A DNA stretch of 64,000 nucleotides from the NCBI GenBank assembly GCA_020443295.1, contig JAGRIJ010000043.1, positions 62,001-126,000 on the forward strand, in the 5' to 3' direction. The notes beneath the pieces were generated by a model, which searched no databases, had not been told where the DNA came from, and was given only the letters and a program-made list of their open reading frames with translations. Position 1 is the first letter of the stretch; each line of letters begins with the position of its first letter. Source of the DNA: Alphaproteobacteria bacterium. Its GTDB lineage: Bacteria > Pseudomonadota > Alphaproteobacteria > Micavibrionales > Micavibrionaceae. Below are positions 25,183 to 64,000 of the stretch, piece after piece. Both the position numbers and the translations under genes were made by a program.

Positions 25183-25534
25183 TGTGTCCGCTGCACTTTG
25201 CCTTGTTTTCGCAAGATGCTTTGCCCTGACAGCTCGACTTGGCCTGACATGAAGATTTTGCCTGACAGCTCGACTTCGTCTGACAGGAAGACTTGCCGTG
25301 ACAGGATGCCTTGCTGGAGCAAGAGCTTCCGCCTGTGGGCTTATCCGCGTTTTTACAGCTCATTTTGCTGTTGCATCCGCTTGCGCTGCAGCCGTTGCAG
25401 CCGTTGCTGCCGGAGCCTGCAAATGCCGGAGACGCAGAGAATGCGCCAACGGCGAGCATTCCTGCAAGCGCCACGGTTGCCAGTTTCTTGTTCACCTTGG
25501 CTCTCTTTGCCTCTTTCTTGACAGTTTTGGTCAT
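25157..25534 (-). CDS. Secreted Cys-repeat RiPP precursor, bufferin-like (precursor 1)
   Basis: This 125-residue peptide has a basic N-terminus and a Sec signal peptide ending near AFA (about residue 39). A low-complexity mature part with 12 Cys follows. After GCNGCSASGC come repeats of the form SC-x-x-K-S/A, with successive Cys mostly six residues apart (for example SCQAKSSC). The tail NDNNRYND is Cys-free. Together with the overlapping MNIO-DUF2063 gene this has the design of bufferin-type RiPPs, periplasmic peptides whose Cys are oxidised to bind copper in studied cases. The metal and the modification here are unproven. A GAAGGA ribosome site precedes the ATG, and an ECF-type promoter lies 59 bp upstream. 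Confidence 0.88.
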   Translation of the reverse strand: MTKTVKKEAKRAKVNKKLATVALAGMLAVGAFSASPAFAGSGSNGCNGCSASGCNSKMSCKNADKPTGGSSCSSKASCHGKSSCQTKSSCQAKSSCQAKSSCQGKASCENKAKCSGHNDNNRYND

Positions 25535-25592
25535 CAGTTTTTTCCTTCGTTAAAAAGTGATCAGTGTAAATTGCTTTACGATTTCGATTTGA

Positions 25593-25618
25593 TTCGTACG
25601 CATCGGAGCACAGGTTAC
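25593..25618 (-). promoter_or_regulatory. Candidate ECF-sigma promoter of precursor 1 and the MNIO gene
   Basis: Read on the minus strand, GTAACC (25618-25613) is followed after exactly 16 bp by CGAA (25596-25593). The same arrangement stands in front of precursor 2 at nearly the same distance from the start codon. A GTAACC-N16-CGAA element is, as I recall, the one reported for the heavy-metal-responsive sigma factor F of Caulobacter. That recollection should be checked. Confidence 0.65.
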
Positions 25619-25631
25619 ACGTTTTTTCAGA

Positions 25632-25669
25632 CAAAAAACAGAGACCCCGCAACAAAGCGCGGGGTCTCT
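25632..25669 (-). terminator. Intrinsic terminator downstream of precursor 2
   Basis: A perfect 11-bp stem (25640-25650 with 25659-25669, AGAGACCCCGC arms) with an 8-base loop is followed on the minus strand by GTTTTTT. It lies just after the stop of precursor 2 and upstream of the precursor 1 promoter, so the two precursors belong to separate transcription units. Confidence 0.85.
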
Positions 25670-25689
25670 TTATGTTATGACAATCAAAT

Positions 25690-26055
25690 TTATTCGTTGC
25701 CGTCCGGGTCTTCAACCGGGGTTTCGTCTTCAGTTTTTCCTTCACAGGAGGCCTTGCCCTGACAGGAGGCCTTGCCTTCTTCTTCAGTATTACCCTTGCA
25801 AGAGGCTTTTGCCTGACAGGAGGTTTTGCCCTCTTCCGGGGTTGCGGTTTCTTCGGCCTTGCCCTCGCATGAGGATTTGCCCTGGCAAGAACTGGCTTCG
25901 GCCTTGGGGTTGCAACCGTTGGCACTGCAACCGCTTGCCGCGGTGTCCGCCGCGAAGGTTTTCGTTGCGGTGAACGTGCCCGCCGCCATCAGACCGGCAA
26001 GCGCCACGGTTGCCAGCTTCTTGTTCAATTTCGATTTTTTGTCAGTGATTTTCAT
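25690..26055 (-). CDS. Secreted Cys-repeat RiPP precursor, bufferin-like (precursor 2)
   Basis: This 121-residue peptide is a paralog of precursor 1. The two share the leader NKKLATVALAG within a Sec signal peptide and the opening of the mature part (GCSANGCN against GCSASGCN). It has 8 Cys. Six of them are grouped in three pairs of form SC-x4-SC (SCQGKSSC, SCQAKASC, SCQGKASC), separated by Glu- and Thr-rich acidic linkers. The C-terminus is acidic (EDPDGNE). It has no modifying enzyme in its own transcription unit and presumably uses the neighbouring MNIO. An AGGGAC ribosome site precedes the ATG. Confidence 0.87.
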   Translation of the reverse strand: MKITDKKSKLNKKLATVALAGLMAAGTFTATKTFAADTAASGCSANGCNPKAEASSCQGKSSCEGKAEETATPEEGKTSCQAKASCKGNTEEEGKASCQGKASCEGKTEDETPVEDPDGNE

Positions 26056-47261: not shown

Positions 47262-48449
47262 TCAAGCTCTTTTCCTGTTCTTATAAGGCGCCCAGGTTTT
47301 TTTCAGGTTTGAAATTGGTTTTTCTATATAGTCGTAACTTAAACCCGCAATAATGAAAGCCAAAGCAATCCCGAGGAAAAGCAGGATGAAATGGAGCAGC
47401 CAAAAATTTGCGACTCCTCTAGCCGCCAAAAGGTTTCTAAGAGCAATCTGAACCAGATGGCTATATATATAGAGACCATAACTGATGTCCCCTGCTCTCT
47501 GTACGATACTGTGTTTAAGGAAAGTATGGATCTTTCCCTCGTTCGCGGGGACGATCAGAGCAGCCGTCAGAAAGAAAGAAATCAGCATTGTAAGAGGTAC
47601 AATTACTGCGGATAGCCCCTCAAAGAAATTTTCTGTGGCTGCAGTCGCCAGAAGATAGGCTAAGGTCAGGATGCTCAGAACTAAGATTGAGAAAGGCCCA
47701 AAGTTGTTAATTTTGACTAACTTTTCAGGGGTGTTTTTTTTCATTACGGCCAGAACTGCTCCCATAAACAATGCATCCATTCTTGTTGGGGTTGAGGTAT
47801 AAGCCGGGACCCAATGCCACTCATACGTCATATAAATCCTCAGGCCCGCGGAAAAGGCGGCGAGGCTTATAAGAAGCGTTACAAAAACGCGATAAGAAAT
47901 TCTTTTATAAAGAAACAGGAAAAGAGCAGGCCAGACGATATAAAACTGTTGCTCGACCGCGAGCGACCATAAATGTGTAAACCATGTCAGGTTCGAGTGA
48001 GCGGAGACAAAATTATGAATATCAAAGAAGACGACCCAGTTACTGACGTAGAGAATATGATAAACAAATACCTGAAGAAGGTTATACTCCCCCTTAATCT
48101 GCCCAAACATAACCAGAAGTAAAAAAATAGCAACCAGACCGAAATAATAAAGCGGAAGTATGCGCAAAGCCCGCCGGATGTAGAATTTTTTCAATCCTGA
48201 CGGCTCATCTTTCGTATCGATGAGGATCCCTGTAATCAGAAAACCAGAAATCACAAAAAACAACGTGACGCCGGATGAGCCGATCCATGCAATGTCAGTA
48301 TAAATTTGCGTCAAGGTATTTGGTGTCGAAGCCGTTGAGGCCAGTTCCGCCGCGTGCAGCCATATTACCATCGTGGCAGCAACCGCCCTTAGGCCGTTCA
48401 GTTCCTGATAGCGCCTTCCGACAACAATATTACTGTCTTGCTCAGCCAT
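47262..48449 (-). CDS. Acyltransferase family 3 membrane protein (OafA/YrhL-like)
   Basis: This is a polytopic membrane protein of 395 residues with about ten helices. The acyltransferase-3 signature is present: LNGLRAVAATMVIWLHA near residue 17, VTLFFVISGFLITGIL, the RRALRILPLYYFG segment and LWSLAVEQQFYIVWPALF. Such enzymes add O-acyl groups to surface polysaccharides or lipids. It stands alone next to glyS. It is similar in type to the two acyltransferases near 55 kb but not their close copy. Confidence 0.88.
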   Translation of the reverse strand: MAEQDSNIVVGRRYQELNGLRAVAATMVIWLHAAELASTASTPNTLTQIYTDIAWIGSSGVTLFFVISGFLITGILIDTKDEPSGLKKFYIRRALRILPLYYFGLVAIFLLLVMFGQIKGEYNLLQVFVYHILYVSNWVVFFDIHNFVSAHSNLTWFTHLWSLAVEQQFYIVWPALFLFLYKRISYRVFVTLLISLAAFSAGLRIYMTYEWHWVPAYTSTPTRMDALFMGAVLAVMKKNTPEKLVKINNFGPFSILVLSILTLAYLLATAATENFFEGLSAVIVPLTMLISFFLTAALIVPANEGKIHTFLKHSIVQRAGDISYGLYIYSHLVQIALRNLLAARGVANFWLLHFILLFLGIALAFIIAGLSYDYIEKPISNLKKTWAPYKNRKRA

Positions 48450-48471: not shown

Positions 48472-49995
<1,524 letters not shown>

Positions 49996-50146: not shown

Positions 50147-50182
50147 CAAAATCGGAACTATCTTCTCCAAAATCGGAACTAT
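50147..50182. repeat. Two 15-bp direct repeats upstream of a small gene
   Basis: The sequence CAAAATCGGAACTAT occurs at 50147-50161 and again at 50168-50182. The repeats start 21 bp apart, which is two helical turns. They lie in the region between glyS and the small gene at 50355, about 120 bp upstream of a consensus promoter. Regulatory sites are possible. The intergenic region 49996-50354 shows no other gene. Confidence 0.5.
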
Positions 50183-50304
50183 GTAGTATTTTACTGTAGT
50201 TATCTGGCTATTTACTGCTTGCTATATTTAAGTATTAAATCATTTTTATGTGTTTTACTGTAATTTGAAAGTATATTTTCTTAAAAGAAATACATGCTTT
50301 TTTC

Positions 50305-50331
50305 TTGACAATGTTATCTTTTTTTTATAAT
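50305..50331 (+). promoter_or_regulatory. Consensus -35/-10 promoter of the small gene (copy 1)
   Basis: Perfect TTGACA (50305-50310) and TATAAT (50326-50331) are present, but with a T-rich spacer of only 15 bp, shorter than the usual 17. The start codon lies 24 bp downstream, with an AAGGAG site. Confidence 0.6.
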
Positions 50332-50354
50332 CTGTAATCATCAAGGAGCTAAAC

Positions 50355-50657
50355 ATGGCTACACAAGAAACCTTCGGACCCACACAAGATATCAACCCGG
50401 TAGCGGGTAACCTTGGGGCTCCCGGCACTGCTGGCCGTCCGTTTTTCAGAAACCTCAATATGCAGGCTCAGGCCTCCAGGGGGCAGAGACGCCTCGGCGG
50501 AGGGGATCTTTCGGGCCTTGCAAAGAGAATGACAACGGATGGCGGTTTTAAGGCGACATCAGAAGTCGGGGTCGTACGCGGAATTGGCCTTGGCGGTCTG
50601 GCCATTAATTTCAGTGATGTTCTTGCTACATTAAATAAAGAGTTAGACTACGGATAA
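50355..50657 (+). CDS. Small lineage-specific protein, copy 1 of a duplicated cassette
   Basis: This 100-residue protein is unrecognised. It is Gly-rich and basic in its middle part, with the motif QDINPVAGNLG near residue 11 that recurs in the product of the second copy at 51 kb. It has an excellent ribosome site (AAGGAG) and a consensus promoter. A 64-bp terminator repeat follows. There is no signal peptide and no membrane helix. Length and composition would allow a small DNA- or RNA-associated or regulatory protein, but nothing fixes that. Confidence 0.7.
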   Translation: MATQETFGPTQDINPVAGNLGAPGTAGRPFFRNLNMQAQASRGQRRLGGGDLSGLAKRMTTDGGFKATSEVGVVRGIGLGGLAINFSDVLATLNKELDYG

Positions 50658-50727
50658 GCGGCGGTGTGTGAGCAAAAGCGAGCGAGTTGAACGAGGAAGA
50701 CTAAAATTAAAAAGAGAAATGAGGCAT

Positions 50728-50791
50728 AAACAGCCTTTGATGTTGGGGGAAAGGGGCGTCCGAGCGGGTTCGGCGCCTTTTTCATTTGCGG
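50728..50791 (+). terminator. 64-bp terminator repeat, copy 1
   Basis: This sequence is identical to 51323-51386. Within it, GGCG-T-CCGA (50755-50763) pairs with TCGGCGCC (50770-50777) around a 6-base loop and a single bulged T, followed by TTTTT. That is a good intrinsic terminator on the plus strand, lying downstream of the small gene at 50355. Confidence 0.85.
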
Positions 50792-50960
50792 TAAAAAAAT
50801 TTCGTTTTTGAGATTAATTTTACCGATATCAGAACCACAATAATAATTGTTGTGTTTTTTGTTAACTATATTTTGTTTTTATTTAAGCAAAAAACTCTTA
50901 TTTACTTTTTAATTGCTTTCCTGTTTTTCTAATTACTTATTTTTTTTAAATAGCAAATAT

Positions 50961-50987
50961 TTGCTTTTTTGTTTCTTTTTTTATAGA
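50961..50987 (+). promoter_or_regulatory. Weak promoter of small gene copy 2
   Basis: TTGCTT (50961-50966) and TATAGA (50982-50987) are 15 bp apart with a T-rich spacer, matching the layout of the copy 1 promoter with weaker hexamers. The stretch 50792-50989 is otherwise AT-rich and empty. Confidence 0.4.
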
Positions 50988-50989
50988 AT

Positions 50990-51301
50990 ATGTTCATGAG
51001 TATGGATGTTATCGAACATGGCCCTTCGCGGTCCTTTCAGGATATCAACCCCGTTGCCGGCGGCTTGGGGAGGAGAGCGTCGGCTACGCGTATCTTTCAG
51101 ATAAATTTTCGCGCGCAAAGCCAGGAAGATCGCGGACGCAAAGCCGATCAGGAGCATCATGACTTTTGCAATCTTCTTCAATGCCTGTCCAATTTTGAGC
51201 AGTCGGAAGAGATTGCTTTCGCAAATATAGGAGATTTTGTCGGGGCCGCGCTTTTCGGGCTGGGTCACGACGAGCATGAGCATGCGTATGCTCATGACTA
51301 G
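50990..51301 (+). CDS. Small protein, divergent copy 2 of the duplicated cassette
   Basis: This 103-residue reading frame shares with copy 1 the block QDINPVAGGLG and the following RxF..N..AQ...RG pattern. Its second half is unlike copy 1 and ends in a His/Asp-rich tail (GHDEHEHAYAHD). No ribosome site is visible, and the promoter-like element would start transcription close to the first ATGs, so the frame may be leaderless or a decaying copy. ATGs at 50996 and 51002 are alternatives. An overlapping antisense frame of similar length exists, but the shared motif and the terminator direction favour the plus strand. Confidence 0.45.
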   Translation: MFMSMDVIEHGPSRSFQDINPVAGGLGRRASATRIFQINFRAQSQEDRGRKADQEHHDFCNLLQCLSNFEQSEEIAFANIGDFVGAALFGLGHDEHEHAYAHD

Positions 51302-51322
51302 GTGAGTAGAGATAATCAGGCG

Positions 51323-51386
51323 AAACAGCCTTTGATGTTGGGGGAAAGGGGCGTCCGAGCGGGTTCGGCGCCTTTTTCATTTGCGG
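51323..51386 (+). terminator. 64-bp terminator repeat, copy 2
   Basis: This is an exact copy of 50728-50791 shifted by 595 bp, including the bulged GGCG-CCGA stem (51350-51372) and T-run. It follows copy 2 of the small gene, so gene and terminator were duplicated together. It ends 13 bp before the convergent protease gene. Confidence 0.85.
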
Positions 51387-51399
51387 CAAATTTCAAGAC

Positions 51400-52824
51400 T
51401 CAGCGGATGAGGATTTTATTGACGCGCCCGTTGCTGAGGATGACAAGTGCATATCCTTGCGGTGACGGCGTTCCGAGCGCCTTCATGACGTCCGTTACTT
51501 TTTTAATCTTTGTCCCGTTAATTTCCAGCAGGATGTCCCCCGGGGAAACCACACGCATCCGCATGGCCTGGGGCACTTTCGTGACGATTACACCCTCTTC
51601 CGGCTGGCTGATATCAAAGTCAACGGAAACAGCGGGGTTCAGGTTCGCGATGGTAACCCCATTGAGCATATGACGGCCCTTGAGAATTGTTTCCTGGCGC
51701 GGCGGATCGTCAGGAGGCGCAAGCGCCGGAACCTCCAGAGCCTGTGTTTTTCCTTCACGGAGGATTTCAAATTTCGCTTTTTCCCCGACCGGGACCGTCG
51801 CCATGCGGAATTTAATTTCCGCCGCATCGCGAATCGGATGTCCGTTCACCGAAATCACCGCATCCCCGATCTTTGCCCCGGCGTTAAGCAAGGGACTGGC
51901 GGAGTGCATTTGGGAAATCAGGGCACCGCCCGGACGAGGCAGGCCCAGACTGGTTGCGATTTCAGGAGTTATCGTTTGCATATCCGCACCCAGCCACGGG
52001 CGCACCACGCCGCTATTCCCTGTCTGACCGTTCTTTTCAGCCGCGACAATCGTAGTCACCATTTCAGAGGGGATCGCGAACCCTATTCCCAGAGACCCGC
52101 CGCTGCGGGAAAAGATCGCCGTGTTGATGCCGACGACCCCGCCGTCCATGGCTACGAGCGGGCCCCCCGAGTTTCCGGGGTTTATGGCGGCATCTGTCTG
52201 GATGAAGAAGTTGAAGTCGTTAATATTGAGAGAGGAGCGTCCCTGCGCAGAGACTATCCCGCTGGTGACTGTCTGACCGACCCCGAAAGGATTCCCGATA
52301 GCCAGAACAAGATCCCCTACTTCCAGGGATTCGCTGGGCTTTAATGTTACGAACGGCAGAGACTCCTTGCCGGGATCGATCCTCAGCAATGCCAGATCGG
52401 AGGCTTTATCGACCAGAGCCAGCTTTGCCGGGAATTCCCGGCCATCCGCCAGGACCACAACGATTTCCGTGGCCGCCTCGATGACGTGCGCATTGGTTAC
52501 CACGAGTCCATCGGCGTGCAAAATTACGCCTGAACCGAGCGAGGCTTCGAGATGCTGGCGCATGGGCAGGTTATTCATAAAAAACTGGCGGAAGAGCGGA
52601 TCGGTCAGAAAAGGACTGTTTACCGGCGACACTACGACGCGCTTGGTATAAATATTTACGACCGCAGGCATCACTTTTTTGACCAGCGGCGCAAAAGACA
52701 GCTGGAGCTGCTGTTGCGTCTGGGGAACGTTGCCCTGCAGAGGCTGCGCCTGTGCATACGCTGATGGAACCAAGAAAACCGAAACCAGCAAGGCTGGTAT
52801 GAGGATAAGAATTCTGTTAAGCAT
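51400..52824 (-). CDS. DegP/HtrA-like periplasmic serine protease with two PDZ domains
   Basis: This 474-residue protein has a signal peptide ending at AYAQA (about residue 25). A trypsin-like protease domain carries the triad His113 (VVTNAHVIE), Asp143 (KASDLALL) and Ser219 (NPGNSGGPL). Two PDZ domains follow, at about residues 285-375 and 380-470 (GRVNKILI at the end). HtrA proteases degrade or refold damaged envelope proteins. The ATG at 52824 is preferred because the signal peptide follows directly. It is divergent from panB. Confidence 0.94.
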   Translation of the reverse strand: MLNRILILIPALLVSVFLVPSAYAQAQPLQGNVPQTQQQLQLSFAPLVKKVMPAVVNIYTKRVVVSPVNSPFLTDPLFRQFFMNNLPMRQHLEASLGSGVILHADGLVVTNAHVIEAATEIVVVLADGREFPAKLALVDKASDLALLRIDPGKESLPFVTLKPSESLEVGDLVLAIGNPFGVGQTVTSGIVSAQGRSSLNINDFNFFIQTDAAINPGNSGGPLVAMDGGVVGINTAIFSRSGGSLGIGFAIPSEMVTTIVAAEKNGQTGNSGVVRPWLGADMQTITPEIATSLGLPRPGGALISQMHSASPLLNAGAKIGDAVISVNGHPIRDAAEIKFRMATVPVGEKAKFEILREGKTQALEVPALAPPDDPPRQETILKGRHMLNGVTIANLNPAVSVDFDISQPEEGVIVTKVPQAMRMRVVSPGDILLEINGTKIKKVTDVMKALGTPSPQGYALVILSNGRVNKILIR

Positions 52825-52905
52825 AGCGGTGATGTATAAAACAGCTTTCGGGCCGTTGCAAGGGTCCCTTAGAAAAGATAGCTTAATCATAGACTTACGT
52901 AACAA

Positions 52906-53745
52906 ATGCCAGAACAAATTTTACCAGACAGGCTTACAATCGCGTCGATCCGGGCATGGAAAAACGCCCGCGCGCCTCTTGTGTGCCTGACCGCCTATAC
53001 CGCCCCGATGGCGCAGATTCTTGACCCCCATTGCGATATCCTGCTGGTGGGGGATTCTATCGGTATGGCGCTTTACGGCATGGATAATACGCTGGGCGTT
53101 ACGCTGGAGACCATGATCGCCCACGGGCGCGCCGTGATGTCAAAGGCCCGGACAGCCTGTGTCCTGATCGATATGCCTTACGGCACTTATGAGGATACAC
53201 CGCAGCAAGCTTATGAGAGCGCCCGGAGGCTTCTCATTGAAACCGGGTGTGACGGGGTGAAGCTTGAAGGCGGGCACGAGATGGCCGAGACGATCAGATA
53301 TCTGGCTGCCAAGGATATTCCGGTGATGGCGCATATCGGCCTCAAGCCGCAATCCGTCGTAAAAGAGGGCGGGTATAAAATCAAGGGAAAAACGGGGGAG
53401 GAAGCCGAAGCGCTGATGGAGGACGCAAAAGCTGTCGAGGCGGCGGGCGCGTTTGCTCTTCTGATCGAGGGCACGGTCGAACCGGTTGCGCGGGCCATCA
53501 CCCAAAGCGTTGACATTCCCACGATAGGCATCGGAGCCTCCCCGGCCTGTGACGGGCAGATTTTGGTAACGGAGGATATGCTGGGCCTGATCACCGACCA
53601 TACTCCGAAATTCGTGAAAAAATACGTGAACCTCGCCGAGGAAATCACAAAAGCCGTAGAAACCTATGCGGCAGACGTGCGTTCACGTGCGTTTCCTGAC
53701 GAGAGCCATACCTACGGTTCAGCGAAAAAAGCCAAGGCACAGTAA
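52906..53745 (+). CDS. panB: 3-methyl-2-oxobutanoate hydroxymethyltransferase
   Basis: This 279-residue enzyme transfers a hydroxymethyl group from methylene-THF to 2-oxoisovalerate, giving ketopantoate for pantothenate and CoA. The Mg-binding and active-site segments are LTAYTAPMAQILD, LLVGDSIGMALYG, DMPYGTYED, GVKLEGGHEM, MAHIGLKPQSV and GIGASPACDGQILV. It overlaps nothing upstream and ends directly before panC, so the two form an operon. Confidence 0.96.
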   Translation: MPEQILPDRLTIASIRAWKNARAPLVCLTAYTAPMAQILDPHCDILLVGDSIGMALYGMDNTLGVTLETMIAHGRAVMSKARTACVLIDMPYGTYEDTPQQAYESARRLLIETGCDGVKLEGGHEMAETIRYLAAKDIPVMAHIGLKPQSVVKEGGYKIKGKTGEEAEALMEDAKAVEAAGAFALLIEGTVEPVARAITQSVDIPTIGIGASPACDGQILVTEDMLGLITDHTPKFVKKYVNLAEEITKAVETYAADVRSRAFPDESHTYGSAKKAKAQ

Positions 53746-54546
53746 ATGAAAAGCGTCCATACACGGGATGGCGTGCAAGAGCTGGTTGCCGAAGCACGCA
53801 AAGGCGGGAAAACCATCGGCTTCGTTCCAACCATGGGCGCCCTGCACGAGGGGCATCTGTCGCTGGTCCGGATCGCCAGACGCGAAGCGGGGTGCGTGGT
53901 GGTGAGCATTTTTGTCAATCCTACCCAATTTGCACCGCACGAAGATTTCAGCGCTTATCCGCGAACAGAAGAGAAAGATCTTTCCCTTCTGGAACCCGAG
54001 GGGGCGGATATCGTTTTCCTTCCGACTGCCGCGGAACTTTACCCGGACGGATTTGGTGCCGCCCTTGCTCCCGGCCCCGCCGCGCAGGGGCTGGAAACCG
54101 ATTTCCGTCCGCATTTTTTCGGGGGCGTGGTCAATGTCGTCAGCCGTCTTTTTCATGCCGTCAAACCGGATATTGCTGTCTTCGGAGAGAAGGATTTTCA
54201 GCAATTGCAGGTTATCCGCGAGATGGTTGAGAAGCTTCATCAACCCATCAAGATTATCGGCGGTCCCATTATCCGGGATGAGTACGGGCTCGCACTTTCA
54301 TCGCGGAATGCTTACCTCAACCCGGAAGAGCTTCTGATCGCAAGAACGCTGAACCGCGTGTTGTTCGATGCCGCGGATGCCATGCGCAAAGGCGGAAAAG
54401 CTGAAGATGTTTGCCGAGAAGCGCGGTTCAGACTCCTGAAAAACGGATTTGATAACGCCGATTACGTCGAGGTACGGTGGGATCGGATTCTTGCGGCCGT
54501 GTGGGTGGGACGGACGCGGCTGATTGATAATGTTGCTATTGGTTAA
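53746..54546 (+). CDS. panC: Pantothenate synthetase
   Basis: This 266-residue enzyme condenses pantoate with beta-alanine using ATP. The nucleotidyltransferase motif PTMGALHEGHLSL (HxGH) is near residue 28, followed by FVNPTQFAPHEDF, FFGGVVNVVSRLF, VFGEKDFQQLQVI and SSRNAYL. The ATG follows the panB stop immediately (no gap). The C-terminal dimerisation part is slightly shorter than in E. coli. Its 3' end overlaps the convergent acyltransferase gene by 11 bp. Confidence 0.96.
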   Translation: MKSVHTRDGVQELVAEARKGGKTIGFVPTMGALHEGHLSLVRIARREAGCVVVSIFVNPTQFAPHEDFSAYPRTEEKDLSLLEPEGADIVFLPTAAELYPDGFGAALAPGPAAQGLETDFRPHFFGGVVNVVSRLFHAVKPDIAVFGEKDFQQLQVIREMVEKLHQPIKIIGGPIIRDEYGLALSSRNAYLNPEELLIARTLNRVLFDAADAMRKGGKAEDVCREARFRLLKNGFDNADYVEVRWDRILAAVWVGRTRLIDNVAIG

Positions 54547-55645
54547 TTCTCTGACTCGTTTCCTTTACAAACTTTTTGCATATCCACGACCGCCACGGTT
54601 TTTCAAAGTACACATAAATGTAGTAAGAGGCAAAAAAAGTAAGGATAAACGAGATAGTGCCCGTAATATATAATGTTGTATCAAAGACTTTTGATCCATC
54701 CATCGCACGCATCATCACAGGTATAAACAAAATATCTATCAGTATAAAATGTACCATATAGAGCGAGTAGGAGGCTTCGCCCCAAAATACCAAGATCTTT
54801 TTTTCCAGTGCTCCTTTTTTATTCTGCCTAGACAAATCAGCTACGATTAAGATGAGGAGCCCATACATCAGGACAATCACAACGTTCGGGACATTCATAA
54901 CAAACGCAATAGCCAGTGCCCACAGCAGCAAATGAAATAATTGCCTCGCGCAGGTAAAGCTGTATTTACGACCCAGTAAATAGAACCCTATACCCATTGT
55001 AAACTCTGGAAGAATTCTTATAAATCCGTGGGTAGTGAGTTCAAAAAAAGGCTTGTTAATCGACTCAAAAAAAATGCTGAGAGTAATAATTGTTACATAA
55101 GAGAGCGTAATTGTTATTAATGGTCCTCTTTTCACAACCCATCCCGCAAGCAAAGGAAAAAGCATATATGCAATCCATTCAGCACTTATGGACCATGAGG
55201 GGTTGTTAAAGCATGTATATTTATTGAGCCCCCAAGCATTCATCATCAGGAGCGACAAAATAAAGCAGGAGAAACTGTCTCCGTGGTCAAAGCCGACCCT
55301 AAACAAAAGGATGGTTGTGGCTGTTGTGGAGGCGGAAAGGATTAGTGTTAGTAAATGGGTAGGGTAAATCCGGGCAAATCTTTTTATACAGAAATTCCGA
55401 AAAGAAAAGCGCTCTTCTTCTAAGGAAGAAATATAACTATGAGCAAGAATGAAACCACTCAGAATAAAGAAAAAATCCACCCCAAGATAAAATCTACCTA
55501 AAAAGGTTATCATTATCGTTTTTGATTCCATAATGTAATGGAAAATTACAACTGCCAAAGCAGCAAAAAAGCGTAAGGATGTCAGACCTCTTATGTCTTT
55601 AGGATAAGGTTTTTGCGCGGGCTCGAACAATTTCAAGAGGTTCAT
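54536..55645 (-). CDS. Acyltransferase family 3 membrane protein, paralog A
   Basis: This is a polytopic protein of 369 residues. It shares with its neighbour the start LTSLRFFAALAVVIFHY, LGVDFFFILSGFILAHSY, KRFARIYPTHLLTL and NPSWSISAEWIAY, all typical of acyltransferase-3 enzymes that acylate surface glycans. The ATG at 55645 is preferred over a TTG two codons earlier. It is AT-rich relative to panC. It is about half identical by eye in its first 170 residues to paralog B, so the pair arose by duplication. Confidence 0.88.
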   Translation of the reverse strand: MNLLKLFEPAQKPYPKDIRGLTSLRFFAALAVVIFHYIMESKTIMITFLGRFYLGVDFFFILSGFILAHSYISSLEEERFSFRNFCIKRFARIYPTHLLTLILSASTTATTILLFRVGFDHGDSFSCFILSLLMMNAWGLNKYTCFNNPSWSISAEWIAYMLFPLLAGWVVKRGPLITITLSYVTIITLSIFFESINKPFFELTTHGFIRILPEFTMGIGFYLLGRKYSFTCARQLFHLLLWALAIAFVMNVPNVVIVLMYGLLILIVADLSRQNKKGALEKKILVFWGEASYSLYMVHFILIDILFIPVMMRAMDGSKVFDTTLYITGTISFILTFFASYYIYVYFEKPWRSWICKKFVKETSQRINQ

Positions 55646-55787
55646 AGGCAATAAACTTACAGCATATTATGAATTATTGGTTTTCTTAAATCATAGACTA
55701 TCTATAGAAAACCAAAACATACAGGGGGGGGAAGCGCTTCTTAGTGGCATTTATTTGAATTTTGTTTCTTATTTTGAGATCGTTACT

Positions 55788-56882
55788 TTATTTCCGTATA
55801 AATTTTCGACATATCCAAAAACGTACAGGGCGCTCAAAATAAGCATACGTAAAGTGAGATAACAGTAGTGATAGAAATAAAGCAACAGGCCATGATGCGA
55901 AAAACCATATATCGAACATTTTTGAGCCGTCGAACTTACGCATCAAGACAATCACCGGGAATGACTCCCATATAATATAGTGAAGCATGTAGAGCGCATA
56001 AGAAGCCTCGCCCCAGTAAACCATAATGTACTGATCTAAAAAGGTTTTTATTTCTTTACGGGCCATATCGGCGACCGTAAAAATTATCCCACCTAACAGA
56101 AACACTATTACTGCATCGTTAATATTCAGGCTTAAGCACGCAACGATGCCTGCGATTAAGATAACTAGAAATGCTTTTGCAGATACTTTCAAAGTATATT
56201 TTCGGCCCAATTGATACAAACCCATACCAAGAGCAAATTCAGGAGTGATGCGAGCAAAGCCAAGTGTTGTTAATTCCGTAAGTTGCTTGCCTAAAAAAGT
56301 AAAAAGAACAAACAAGATAAGAAACCCCAATGAAGACAAAGATATAACTGTCCAAGGGCTTTTTTTTACGGCCCAGCCGGCCAGCAGAGGAAATAAAAGG
56401 TATGCGAACCATTCAGCGCTAATAGACCAGGACGGATCATCGAAACATAAATGGGGATACATCCCCCATGCTTGCAACAAGACGAGACTGTAGAAGAAGC
56501 ACTTCACTGAGTCTCCCGGATCAAAATAGTACCCTTTTAACACATAGATCGTGGTCAGAGTGGTTAAGGCGGATCCCATAAGGGTGACAATATGAACAGG
56601 ATATATGCGCGCCAAGCGTTTAATATAAAAGTTTTTCGCAGAAAATGACCCTTTTTCGATCGGTTGTATGTAACTATGGGTAAGGATAAAGCCACTTAAG
56701 ATGAAGAAAAAGTCGACTCCCAGATAAAGCCGCCCCCAAAACGCCTCCCGCAGCGTATCTACCTCGTAGATAAAATGAAACACAACAATCGCCAGCGCTG
56801 CAAAAAAGCGCAGCGAGGTTAAACCTCTTATGTTTTTTGGGAAGGGAACCGACGTGGGCTTGAGAAGGCCAAAGATGCGCAT
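55788..56882 (-). CDS. Acyltransferase family 3 membrane protein, paralog B
   Basis: This 364-residue membrane protein has the same layout and motifs as paralog A, for example GLTSLRFFAALAIVVFHF, LYLGVDFFFILSGFILTHSY, KRLARIYPVHIVTL and PSWSISAEWFAYLLFPLL. The two are transcribed in the same direction with a 142-bp gap that shows no gene. Different acceptor glycans or acyl donors are possible. Specificity is not readable. Confidence 0.88.
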   Translation of the reverse strand: MRIFGLLKPTSVPFPKNIRGLTSLRFFAALAIVVFHFIYEVDTLREAFWGRLYLGVDFFFILSGFILTHSYIQPIEKGSFSAKNFYIKRLARIYPVHIVTLMGSALTTLTTIYVLKGYYFDPGDSVKCFFYSLVLLQAWGMYPHLCFDDPSWSISAEWFAYLLFPLLAGWAVKKSPWTVISLSSLGFLILFVLFTFLGKQLTELTTLGFARITPEFALGMGLYQLGRKYTLKVSAKAFLVILIAGIVACLSLNINDAVIVFLLGGIIFTVADMARKEIKTFLDQYIMVYWGEASYALYMLHYIIWESFPVIVLMRKFDGSKMFDIWFFASWPVALFLSLLLSHFTYAYFERPVRFWICRKFIRK

Positions 56883-63549: not shown

Positions 63550-64000
63550 TCAATAGTCCCCGTATGTCGGCAAGTTCCCGATGCCCCCGTCTTCCGAGTC
63601 ATCGCTGCCATCATCGTCACCGCCACCATCATCGCCGCCGGAATCGTCGCCTCCTTCATCGTCAGCGGTCTCAAAACCGGACTTATCATAGGCGGTGATA
63701 TGGTAGTCCTGCCAGTTATCGCAACGGGTGGGAACGAGCCTGTATTCCAGCGGGTCGTCTACCTTGGCCTGTCGCCGAATGAGGACAGGAATCGCTTTTT
63801 CTTCCATATATTTTTCAAGATTGGCTTTAATAATATTTACAACCGCCTGTTGGGCCGCCGGAACCTGTTTTTCCCCCACCGGCGGAGAGGCCGGGATTTT
63901 GCTTGCTATGCTGTGCATTTCCCTGCGCAGGAGCGGTGTGAATTCCTTTTGCCAGTCCTGGGTCACCTTCACATGCTTTTTCTCATGTTTGAGAATTTCC
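63550..64000 (-). CDS. DUF922-like protein, paralog (partial, N-terminus beyond right edge)
   Basis: The reading frame is open to the right edge, where it continues as EILKHEKKHVKVTQDW. Thus the HEKKH motif is present close to the edge, and the true start lies outside the window. The downstream part parallels the gene at 62793: an amphipathic helix, a conserved Cys near the end and the same spacing. The tail is Asp/Gly-rich (GGDDSGGDDGGGDDDG) and acidic, unlike its neighbour. The two genes are 61 bp apart and arose by tandem duplication. Confidence 0.7.
   Translation of the reverse strand, partial: EILKHEKKHVKVTQDWQKEFTPLLRREMHSIASKIPASPPVGEKQVPAAQQAVVNIIKANLEKYMEEKAIPVLIRRQAKVDDPLEYRLVPTRCDNWQDYHITAYDKSGFETADDEGGDDSGGDDGGGDDDGSDDSEDGGIGNLPTYGDY

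What the first reader, a model, noticed from the sequence alone, without database searches (positions are those of the whole stretch)
50305..51386. Duplicated cassette of promoter, small gene and terminator
Two units, each with a promoter-like element with a 15-bp T-rich spacer, a gene of about 100 codons sharing QDINPVAG-LG, and an identical 64-bp terminator, stand in tandem. The coding parts have diverged strongly while the terminators are identical. That is odd for one simple duplication and suggests gene conversion, or a mobile or functional terminator element. The products are unknown.
Basis: partly seen in the sequence, partly recalled or inferred. Interest (0 to 1): 0.62.

Follow-up and report, generated by a model that had tools for sequence, protein, structure and literature searches.

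The report
Small-gene slot with conserved RNA tail
Two old, fast-changing copies of a small gene in a Micavibrio-type bacterium each end in the same conserved RNA tail, which was probably copied recently from one to the other and looks like the last piece of a hairpin RNA rather than a plain stop signal.

Summary
In detail: two tandem small genes, 49% alike over 37 aa, each followed by the same 64-mer (68 bp with one mismatch). No other copy was found in the genome. Homologues place it in a Micavibrio-like family. The slot between glyRS and degP/panB carries one or two small genes in 28 of 29 adjacent loci read. The proteins match no family and are hardly recognisable between genera; within the window's genus they are under purifying selection. 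Both units date from before the split from the nearest relative, which has both genes but one 64-mer, so the identical tails came later (copying or gene conversion). The 64-mer is more than a terminator. It is hairpin (AGGC/GCCU), invariant linker UUUGANNUUKGGG, then a covarying terminator, found at this locus in 14 genomes of three genera. In some relatives hairpin plus linker recur upstream without a terminator, inside a hairpin array. Upstream, two CGRRACTAT boxes 21 bp apart sit about 202-211 bp before most start codons. Best reading: a lineage-specific small-protein mRNA with a functional 3'-UTR RNA, organised like ccaF1-CcsR of Rhodobacter but not homologous by the tests made. Target and activity are unknown. 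Csr-type, mobile-element and plain-terminator readings fail tests.

The parts
50152..50182 (+). two direct CGGAACTAT boxes, 21 bp apart, about 202 bp before the ATG of unit 1; putative operator or upstream activating site
   Evidence: single occurrence in the genome; 21 is the best of 13 spacings tried in 13 of 16 upstream regions (one of them a tie), boxes at 201-211 bp from the ATG in 12 of those 13
50290..50331 (+). promoter of unit 1: ATACATGCTTTTTTC upstream tract, -35 TTGACA, -10 TATAAT (15-bp spacer) or TAATCT (17-bp spacer)
   Evidence: conserved in the alignment with G001, G002, G006; not above chance in the consensus scan
50355..50657 (+). unit 1 small protein gene, 100 aa, no known family
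   Evidence: orthologues in G001 and G002; third codon positions differ most (0.73 vs 0.39 and 0.29 against G001a); no Pfam, NCBIfam, PHROG or PADLOC match
50721..50793 (+). 3' element of unit 1: hairpin AGGC/GCCU, linker UUUGAUGUUGGGGGAAA, intrinsic terminator
50811..50840 (+). degenerate copy of the two boxes before unit 2
   Evidence: aligned with the box region (10 of 18 matches at spacing 21, not better than other spacings); clear in the relative G001b (15 of 18)
50961..50989 (+). putative promoter of unit 2 (TTGCTT, 17 bp, TAGAAT)
   Evidence: position by alignment with relatives; weak by consensus
50990..51301 (+). unit 2 small protein gene, 100-103 aa, paralogue of unit 1
   Evidence: closest to G001b (43.5 bits) rather than to unit 1 (23.5 bits); codon-position differences 0.46/0.38/0.62 against G001b
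51317..51388 (+). 3' element of unit 2, identical to that of unit 1 over 64 bp; ends just before the stop of the convergent degP
48472..49995 (-). glycyl-tRNA synthetase gene, left border of the slot
   Evidence: name from knowledge; homologue mapped in 87 of 104 family genomes
51400..52917 (-). DegP/HtrA-type protease gene, right border of the slot (panB follows at 52906-53745)
   Evidence: names from knowledge; homologues mapped beside the slot

Best explanation
The two units are old tandem copies of a small-protein gene restricted to Micavibrio-like bacteria, sitting in a conserved slot between glyRS and degP. Each is transcribed from its own promoter; a pair of 21-bp-spaced boxes about 200 bp upstream probably binds a dedicated regulator. 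The shared 64-mer is the last module of a structured 3'-UTR RNA: short hairpin, single-stranded conserved linker, intrinsic terminator. It is most likely a functional RNA (a 3'-UTR-derived sRNA or the RNA half of a dual-function transcript) whose exposed linker UUUGA(A/G/U)(G/A/U)UU(G/U)GGG binds a partner RNA or protein. Hfq is a candidate chaperone. The two tails are identical because one was recently copied onto the other, by gene conversion or short duplicative copying, in the window's lineage. Shown by sequence: paralogy and its age relative to G001, single-locus occurrence, cross-genus conservation, covarying terminator stem, repeated modules in relatives, fixed box-to-ATG distance. Inferred: transcription, processing, binding partner, regulator and function of the protein.
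For: Gene duplication is older than the tails: unit 1 pairs with G001a (73.9 bits), unit 2 with G001b (43.5), unit 1 with unit 2 only 23.5. The nearest relative G001 has both genes but only one 64-mer match. Between the two tails there are 3 changes in 70 positions, all in the first ten; at four other columns both agree with each other against G001, one of them unique among 12 sequences. Cross-genus conservation: DNA matches to the 64-mer in G001, G002, G006 and G029 at the same locus. The model made from six sequences found it in 14 of 104 family genomes at E <= 0.01; 11 are at this locus, three weak ones elsewhere. G121, G123 and G124 carry the motif too, below threshold. Linker: 14 invariant columns, AGCCTTTGA..TT.GGG, over 12 sequences. 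Terminator stem: 98.1% of cells paired, 10 cells with changes on both sides against 2.9 in shuffles. Modules without terminator: G055 has three GAGGC/GCCTTTGAAGTTGGG modules, only the last with a terminator; G121 and G127 have two. Hfq in 13 of 13 genomes tested. The carriers form one clade in the DegP tree (85/87). Boxes.
Against: No transcript data. A search of the own genome for complements of the linker gave 9 hits, two of them the element itself, against 8 for the control, so no target signal. The 5' hairpin's 3' arm never varies, so that hairpin has no covariation support. Hairpin arrays occur only in relatives; the window's units keep one module. The panB tree does not group the carriers (4 changes). 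A strong terminator under selection and copied by chance would explain the window alone.
Confidence: 0.55

Rival explanations
1. Only an efficient intrinsic terminator, kept by selection because the small gene faces degP head-on, and copied once between neighbours; the linker is part of terminator function.
For: A perfect terminator with covarying stem. Other genera (g7, g10, g11, g25) end the same slot with an ordinary GGCGC/GCGCC-type terminator.
Against: The linker and the 5' hairpin arm are more conserved than the terminator stem and recur upstream without any terminator in G055, G121 and G127.
Confidence: 0.25
2. The string of hairpins is an mRNA stability or processing element that sets the level of the small protein and does nothing in trans.
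For: It always follows a small ORF; A-rich linkers and Hfq are present; no trans target signal.
Against: Hardly explains an invariant linker sequence across three genera, rather than any hairpin.
Confidence: 0.25
3. The tails are identical by strong purifying selection on both since the old duplication, without recent copying.
For: The element is strongly conserved between genera.
Against: Both tails share four columns against the G001 element, one unique among 12, and G001's second unit has no copy.
Confidence: 0.15
4. A CsrB-type sponge RNA that sequesters a CsrA/RsmA protein.
For: Repeated hairpins; Rfam CsrC appears below threshold (17.1 and 15.9 bits).
Against: No CsrA gene in 13 of 13 genomes; GGA is depleted, 31 against 51.9 expected; Rfam gathering score is 61.
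Confidence: 0.02
5. A mobile or dispersed repeat (REP-like) that landed twice.
For: Two identical copies 595 bp apart.
Against: No further copy in the genome; strong matches in relatives only at this locus.
Confidence: 0.02

Closest known systems
ccaF1-CcsR1-4 locus of Rhodobacter sphaeroides (passages in PMC8625941; 'cuckoo RNA' family known only from a reference title, and recall)
   Same: Alphaproteobacterial gene for a small protein whose 3' UTR carries homologous sRNAs; the paper says they are processed from the ccaF1 mRNA.
   Different: The proteins here match no family, DUF1127 included; the CCUCCUCCC motif (recalled) does not occur in the window; only relatives have tandem modules; no processing or transcript data.
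Dual-function RNAs such as VcdRP of Vibrio cholerae (abstract and outline of PMC8672173)
   Same: One transcript with a small protein and a separate conserved RNA part.
   Different: The ORF here is about 100 aa, not 29; the candidate pairing stretch is G-rich and has no target found.
CsrB/CsrC/Rsm sponge RNAs (Rfam RF00084)
   Same: Series of short hairpins with repeated words between them.
   Different: No CsrA in 13 genomes, GGA depleted, score far below gathering.
Ordinary intrinsic terminators
   Same: GC-rich stem with U tract.
   Different: Conserved hairpin and linker 5' of it, repeated without terminator in relatives.

Membership tests
3'-UTR-derived sRNA (CcsR-like organisation) | conserved RNA in the 3' UTR of a small-protein gene, ending in an intrinsic terminator | tested here: met
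3'-UTR-derived sRNA (CcsR-like organisation) | stable processed RNA in cells | not testable with these tools
   no transcript data
CcsR/cuckoo RNAs | upstream gene encodes a DUF1127 protein | tested here: not met
   no Pfam match for either window protein or for seven relatives, apart from one sub-threshold match to another family
CcsR/cuckoo RNAs | CCUCCUCCC loop motif (recalled) | tested here: not met
   0 matches in the window
Dual-function RNA | ORF under purifying selection | tested here: met
   third positions differ most; dN 0.44-0.60, dS 4.7 for u2/G001b and not computable (-1, read as saturated) for the two other pairs
Dual-function RNA | RNA part base-pairs with targets | tested here: inconclusive
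   7 non-self hits against 8 in the control
CsrB/RsmZ sponge | CsrA protein in the genome | tested here: not met
   0 of 13 genomes; the control rings in 3 of 14 named genomes
CsrB/RsmZ sponge | enriched GGA motifs | tested here: not met
   31 observed, 51.9 expected
Mobile / REP-like element | dispersed copies | tested here: not met
   2 copies only, both here
Intrinsic terminator | stable GC stem followed by a U tract | tested here: met
Type III toxin-antitoxin RNA | RNA repeats upstream of a ToxN-type nuclease gene (recalled) | tested here: not met
   RNA lies downstream of the ORF; next genes are degP or panB homologues

The most novel reading that the evidence does not exclude
A so far undescribed modular RNA, a string of short hairpins carrying the linker GCCUUUGARRUUGGG, is the conserved product of this locus in one clade of Micavibrio-like bacteria. 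The small protein before it is free to turn over beyond recognition, and tails of paralogous copies are homogenised, so that the RNA rather than the protein defines the gene.
Probability: 0.3. Interest if true: 0.7.

Novelty: new variant of a known kind. Interest (0 to 1): 0.5.

Why it matters
It points to an RNA element absent from Rfam at gathering thresholds in the window (in ten loci only sub-threshold matches), attached to a hypervariable small-protein gene at a fixed site in a Micavibrio-like lineage. Two literature searches, for Micavibrio with small RNA and for Micavibrio aeruginosavorus with transcriptome, listed no paper on such an element by title or abstract start (listings only). 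It also gives a clean case in which a non-coding tail outlives and is homogenised over coding parts that diverge.

Tried and rejected
Csr-type sponge: no CsrA, GGA depleted. Mobile element: no other copies. Known protein family: Pfam, NCBIfam, PHROGs, PADLOC give only chance-level matches. Relatives outside the family: none in plasmids, phages, viral contigs or the genome-contig scan. The viral scan used a three-row alignment whose second row began two codons before its ATG. Trans target of the linker: no signal. Regulon of the boxes: no second site; a looser pattern gave 6 hits against 13 in the control. Structure: the AlphaFold model of unit 1 from a three-row alignment has mean pLDDT 51.5, so no fold search was made.

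Homology between genera of the small proteins: a leave-one-genus-out profile test, first three residues removed, gave 10 of 43 proteins above all 100 shuffled copies (about 0.4 expected). A first run with the residues kept gave more, biased by the start. Common descent is likely but thin: 22 of 43 do not reach the best 6%.

A sense ORF of 45 aa or more is weak evidence alone: 21 of the 30 intervals also hold an antisense ORF that long (my count). The longest sense ORF beats the longest antisense one in 25 of 29. Unit 2 itself is overlapped by a 104-aa antisense ORF. The last 3' module of G123 was left out of alignment A5 because its arms differ.

Full report
Observation. Both units exist as described. 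ORF 1 is 50355-50657 and ORF 2 is 50990-51301. The tails are 50728-50795 and 51323-51390, one mismatch in 68, none in 64. The genome (2.56 Mb, 87 contigs) has no other full copy, and the two proteins find only each other in it. In unit 1 the promoter reads as TTGACA-15-TATAAT, but the alignment with relatives favours a normal 17-18-bp spacing. The consensus scan alone finds neither promoter.

Where it lies. The nearest relatives of the window are two genomes of the same genus, G001 and G002, and other genera of one family. I therefore call the family Micavibrio-like; this is inferred. Two further exact pattern hits, in KSB1 and Bacteroidales records, are about what chance gives in 257 Gb (own estimate, about one).

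The slot. A glyRS N-terminal query matched 87 of 104 family genomes. I fetched upstream regions of 60 of these and added nine loci fetched by the RNA model and the window, 70 stretches in all. In 30, glyRS and a degP or panB homologue lie in the same stretch. In one (G017) they are 2.7 kb apart and I leave it out. Of the remaining 29, 28 have one or more small ORFs pointing from glyRS to degP. The script counted 27 of these; the ORF of G108 was missed because its longest reading starts inside glyRS. In G107 the interval is 98 bp and empty. Genera: g1, g2, g6, g7, g10, g11, g25, g28, g29, g32. The proteins are 48-233 aa in my list of 43, and phmmer links them almost only within genera. A leave-one-genus-out profile puts 10 of 43 above all 100 shuffles, so a common origin is likely but not firmly shown.

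The genes are real in the window's genus. Codon-position differences are 0.39/0.29/0.73 (u1/G001a), 0.44/0.32/0.67 (G001a/G002) and 0.46/0.38/0.62 (u2/G001b). dN is 0.44-0.60; dS is 4.7 for u2/G001b and not computable for the other two, which I read as saturation.

Age of the duplication against age of the tails. Unit 1 pairs with G001a and unit 2 with G001b; unit 1 and unit 2 are far less alike. So the gene doubled before the two species parted. G001 has one 64-mer, after its first gene; G002 has one gene and one tail. The two tails of the window differ at 3 of 70 aligned positions, all in the 5' hairpin, and share four columns against G001, one of them found in no other of the 12 sequences. 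The simplest account is recent copying from unit 1 to unit 2, or conversion between them. The evidence is a handful of sites.

What the tail is. Single-strand folding of six homologues gives the same form each time: a short hairpin, an unpaired linker, a strong terminator (z from -2.5 to -5.6). Across 12 sequences of three genera AGCCTTTGA..TT.GGG is invariant, while the terminator stem changes with compensation: 10 cells changed on both sides against 2.9 in shuffles; slid versions have 0 to 4. That alignment was fitted to a model of the stem, which leans towards it. The model made from six sequences recovers 14 of 104 family genomes at E <= 0.01; 11 are this locus, and G035, G043 and G052 are weak matches elsewhere. 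Read directly, G121, G123 and G124 have the motif at the locus too, making 14 genomes: three of g1, one of g5, ten of g28. Over 69 sources (the window and 68 locus stretches) no strong match falls outside these.

Arrays. In relatives the 3' UTR is a string of short hairpins with A-rich spacers. G055 has three GAGGC..GCCTTTGAAGTTGGG modules, G127 two, G121 two before its contig ends, G123 two. Only the last carries a terminator. Words such as GTTGAA (15 against 1.3 expected) and CCTTTG (19 against 0.2) are enriched; the sequences are homologous, so this measures conservation as well as repetition. Rfam has nothing above gathering score in the window and only sub-threshold matches in ten loci. 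Carriers form one clade in the DegP tree (85/87) but not in the weaker panB tree.

Control region. Two boxes of the type CGRRACTAT stand 21 bp apart. In 13 of 16 upstream regions 21 is the best spacing (in G126 tied with another). In 12 of these 13 the boxes lie 201-211 bp before the ATG; in G001b it is 183 bp. Window unit 2, G127 and G129 do not show it. The distance to glyRS varies, by my reading of the same stretches about 145 to 281 bp, so the boxes go with the small gene. They are single in the genome.

Mechanism. I think a regulator acting at the boxes drives a short mRNA for a small, probably flexible protein (model pLDDT 51.5), and that its 3' end is or becomes a functional RNA whose linker meets a partner. 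Hfq is present in 13 of 13 genomes, CsrA in none. No target was found. Organisation resembles ccaF1-CcsR1-4 of Rhodobacter sphaeroides, where PMC8625941 (passages) states that the sRNAs come from the 3' UTR of a small-protein mRNA. It is not a member of that family by the two features tested.

Limits. No expression data; one module only in the window's units; the start of unit 2 is uncertain; the named relatives are metagenome-assembled genomes; 27 of the 87 glyRS matches were not read from the glyRS side, though some of those loci were read through the RNA model.

Noticed in passing
50981-51295 (-): A 104-aa antisense ORF covers nearly all of unit 2; the codon-position pattern favours the sense gene.
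   Followed up: partly
54536-56882 (-): Two neighbouring acyltransferase-like membrane protein genes (371 and 364 aa) that look like tandem paralogues; a third acyltransferase-like gene lies at 47262-48449 (names from knowledge).
   Followed up: no
25220-25836: Clustered tandem repeats with the word CCTGACAG and a 54-bp unit.
   Followed up: no
63607-63664: 15-bp tandem repeat GCCATCATCGTCACC, 3.9 copies.
   Followed up: no
L046 736-931 (G121): The contig ends inside the hairpin array, so the array there may be longer than seen.
   Followed up: no
L085 (G107): The only adjacent glyRS-degP interval read that is empty (98 bp), a natural deletion or the state before insertion.
   Followed up: no
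L051/L052 (G011, G134): Two tandem small ORFs in g10 that pair between species by position, another old tandem pair in the same slot.
   Followed up: partly
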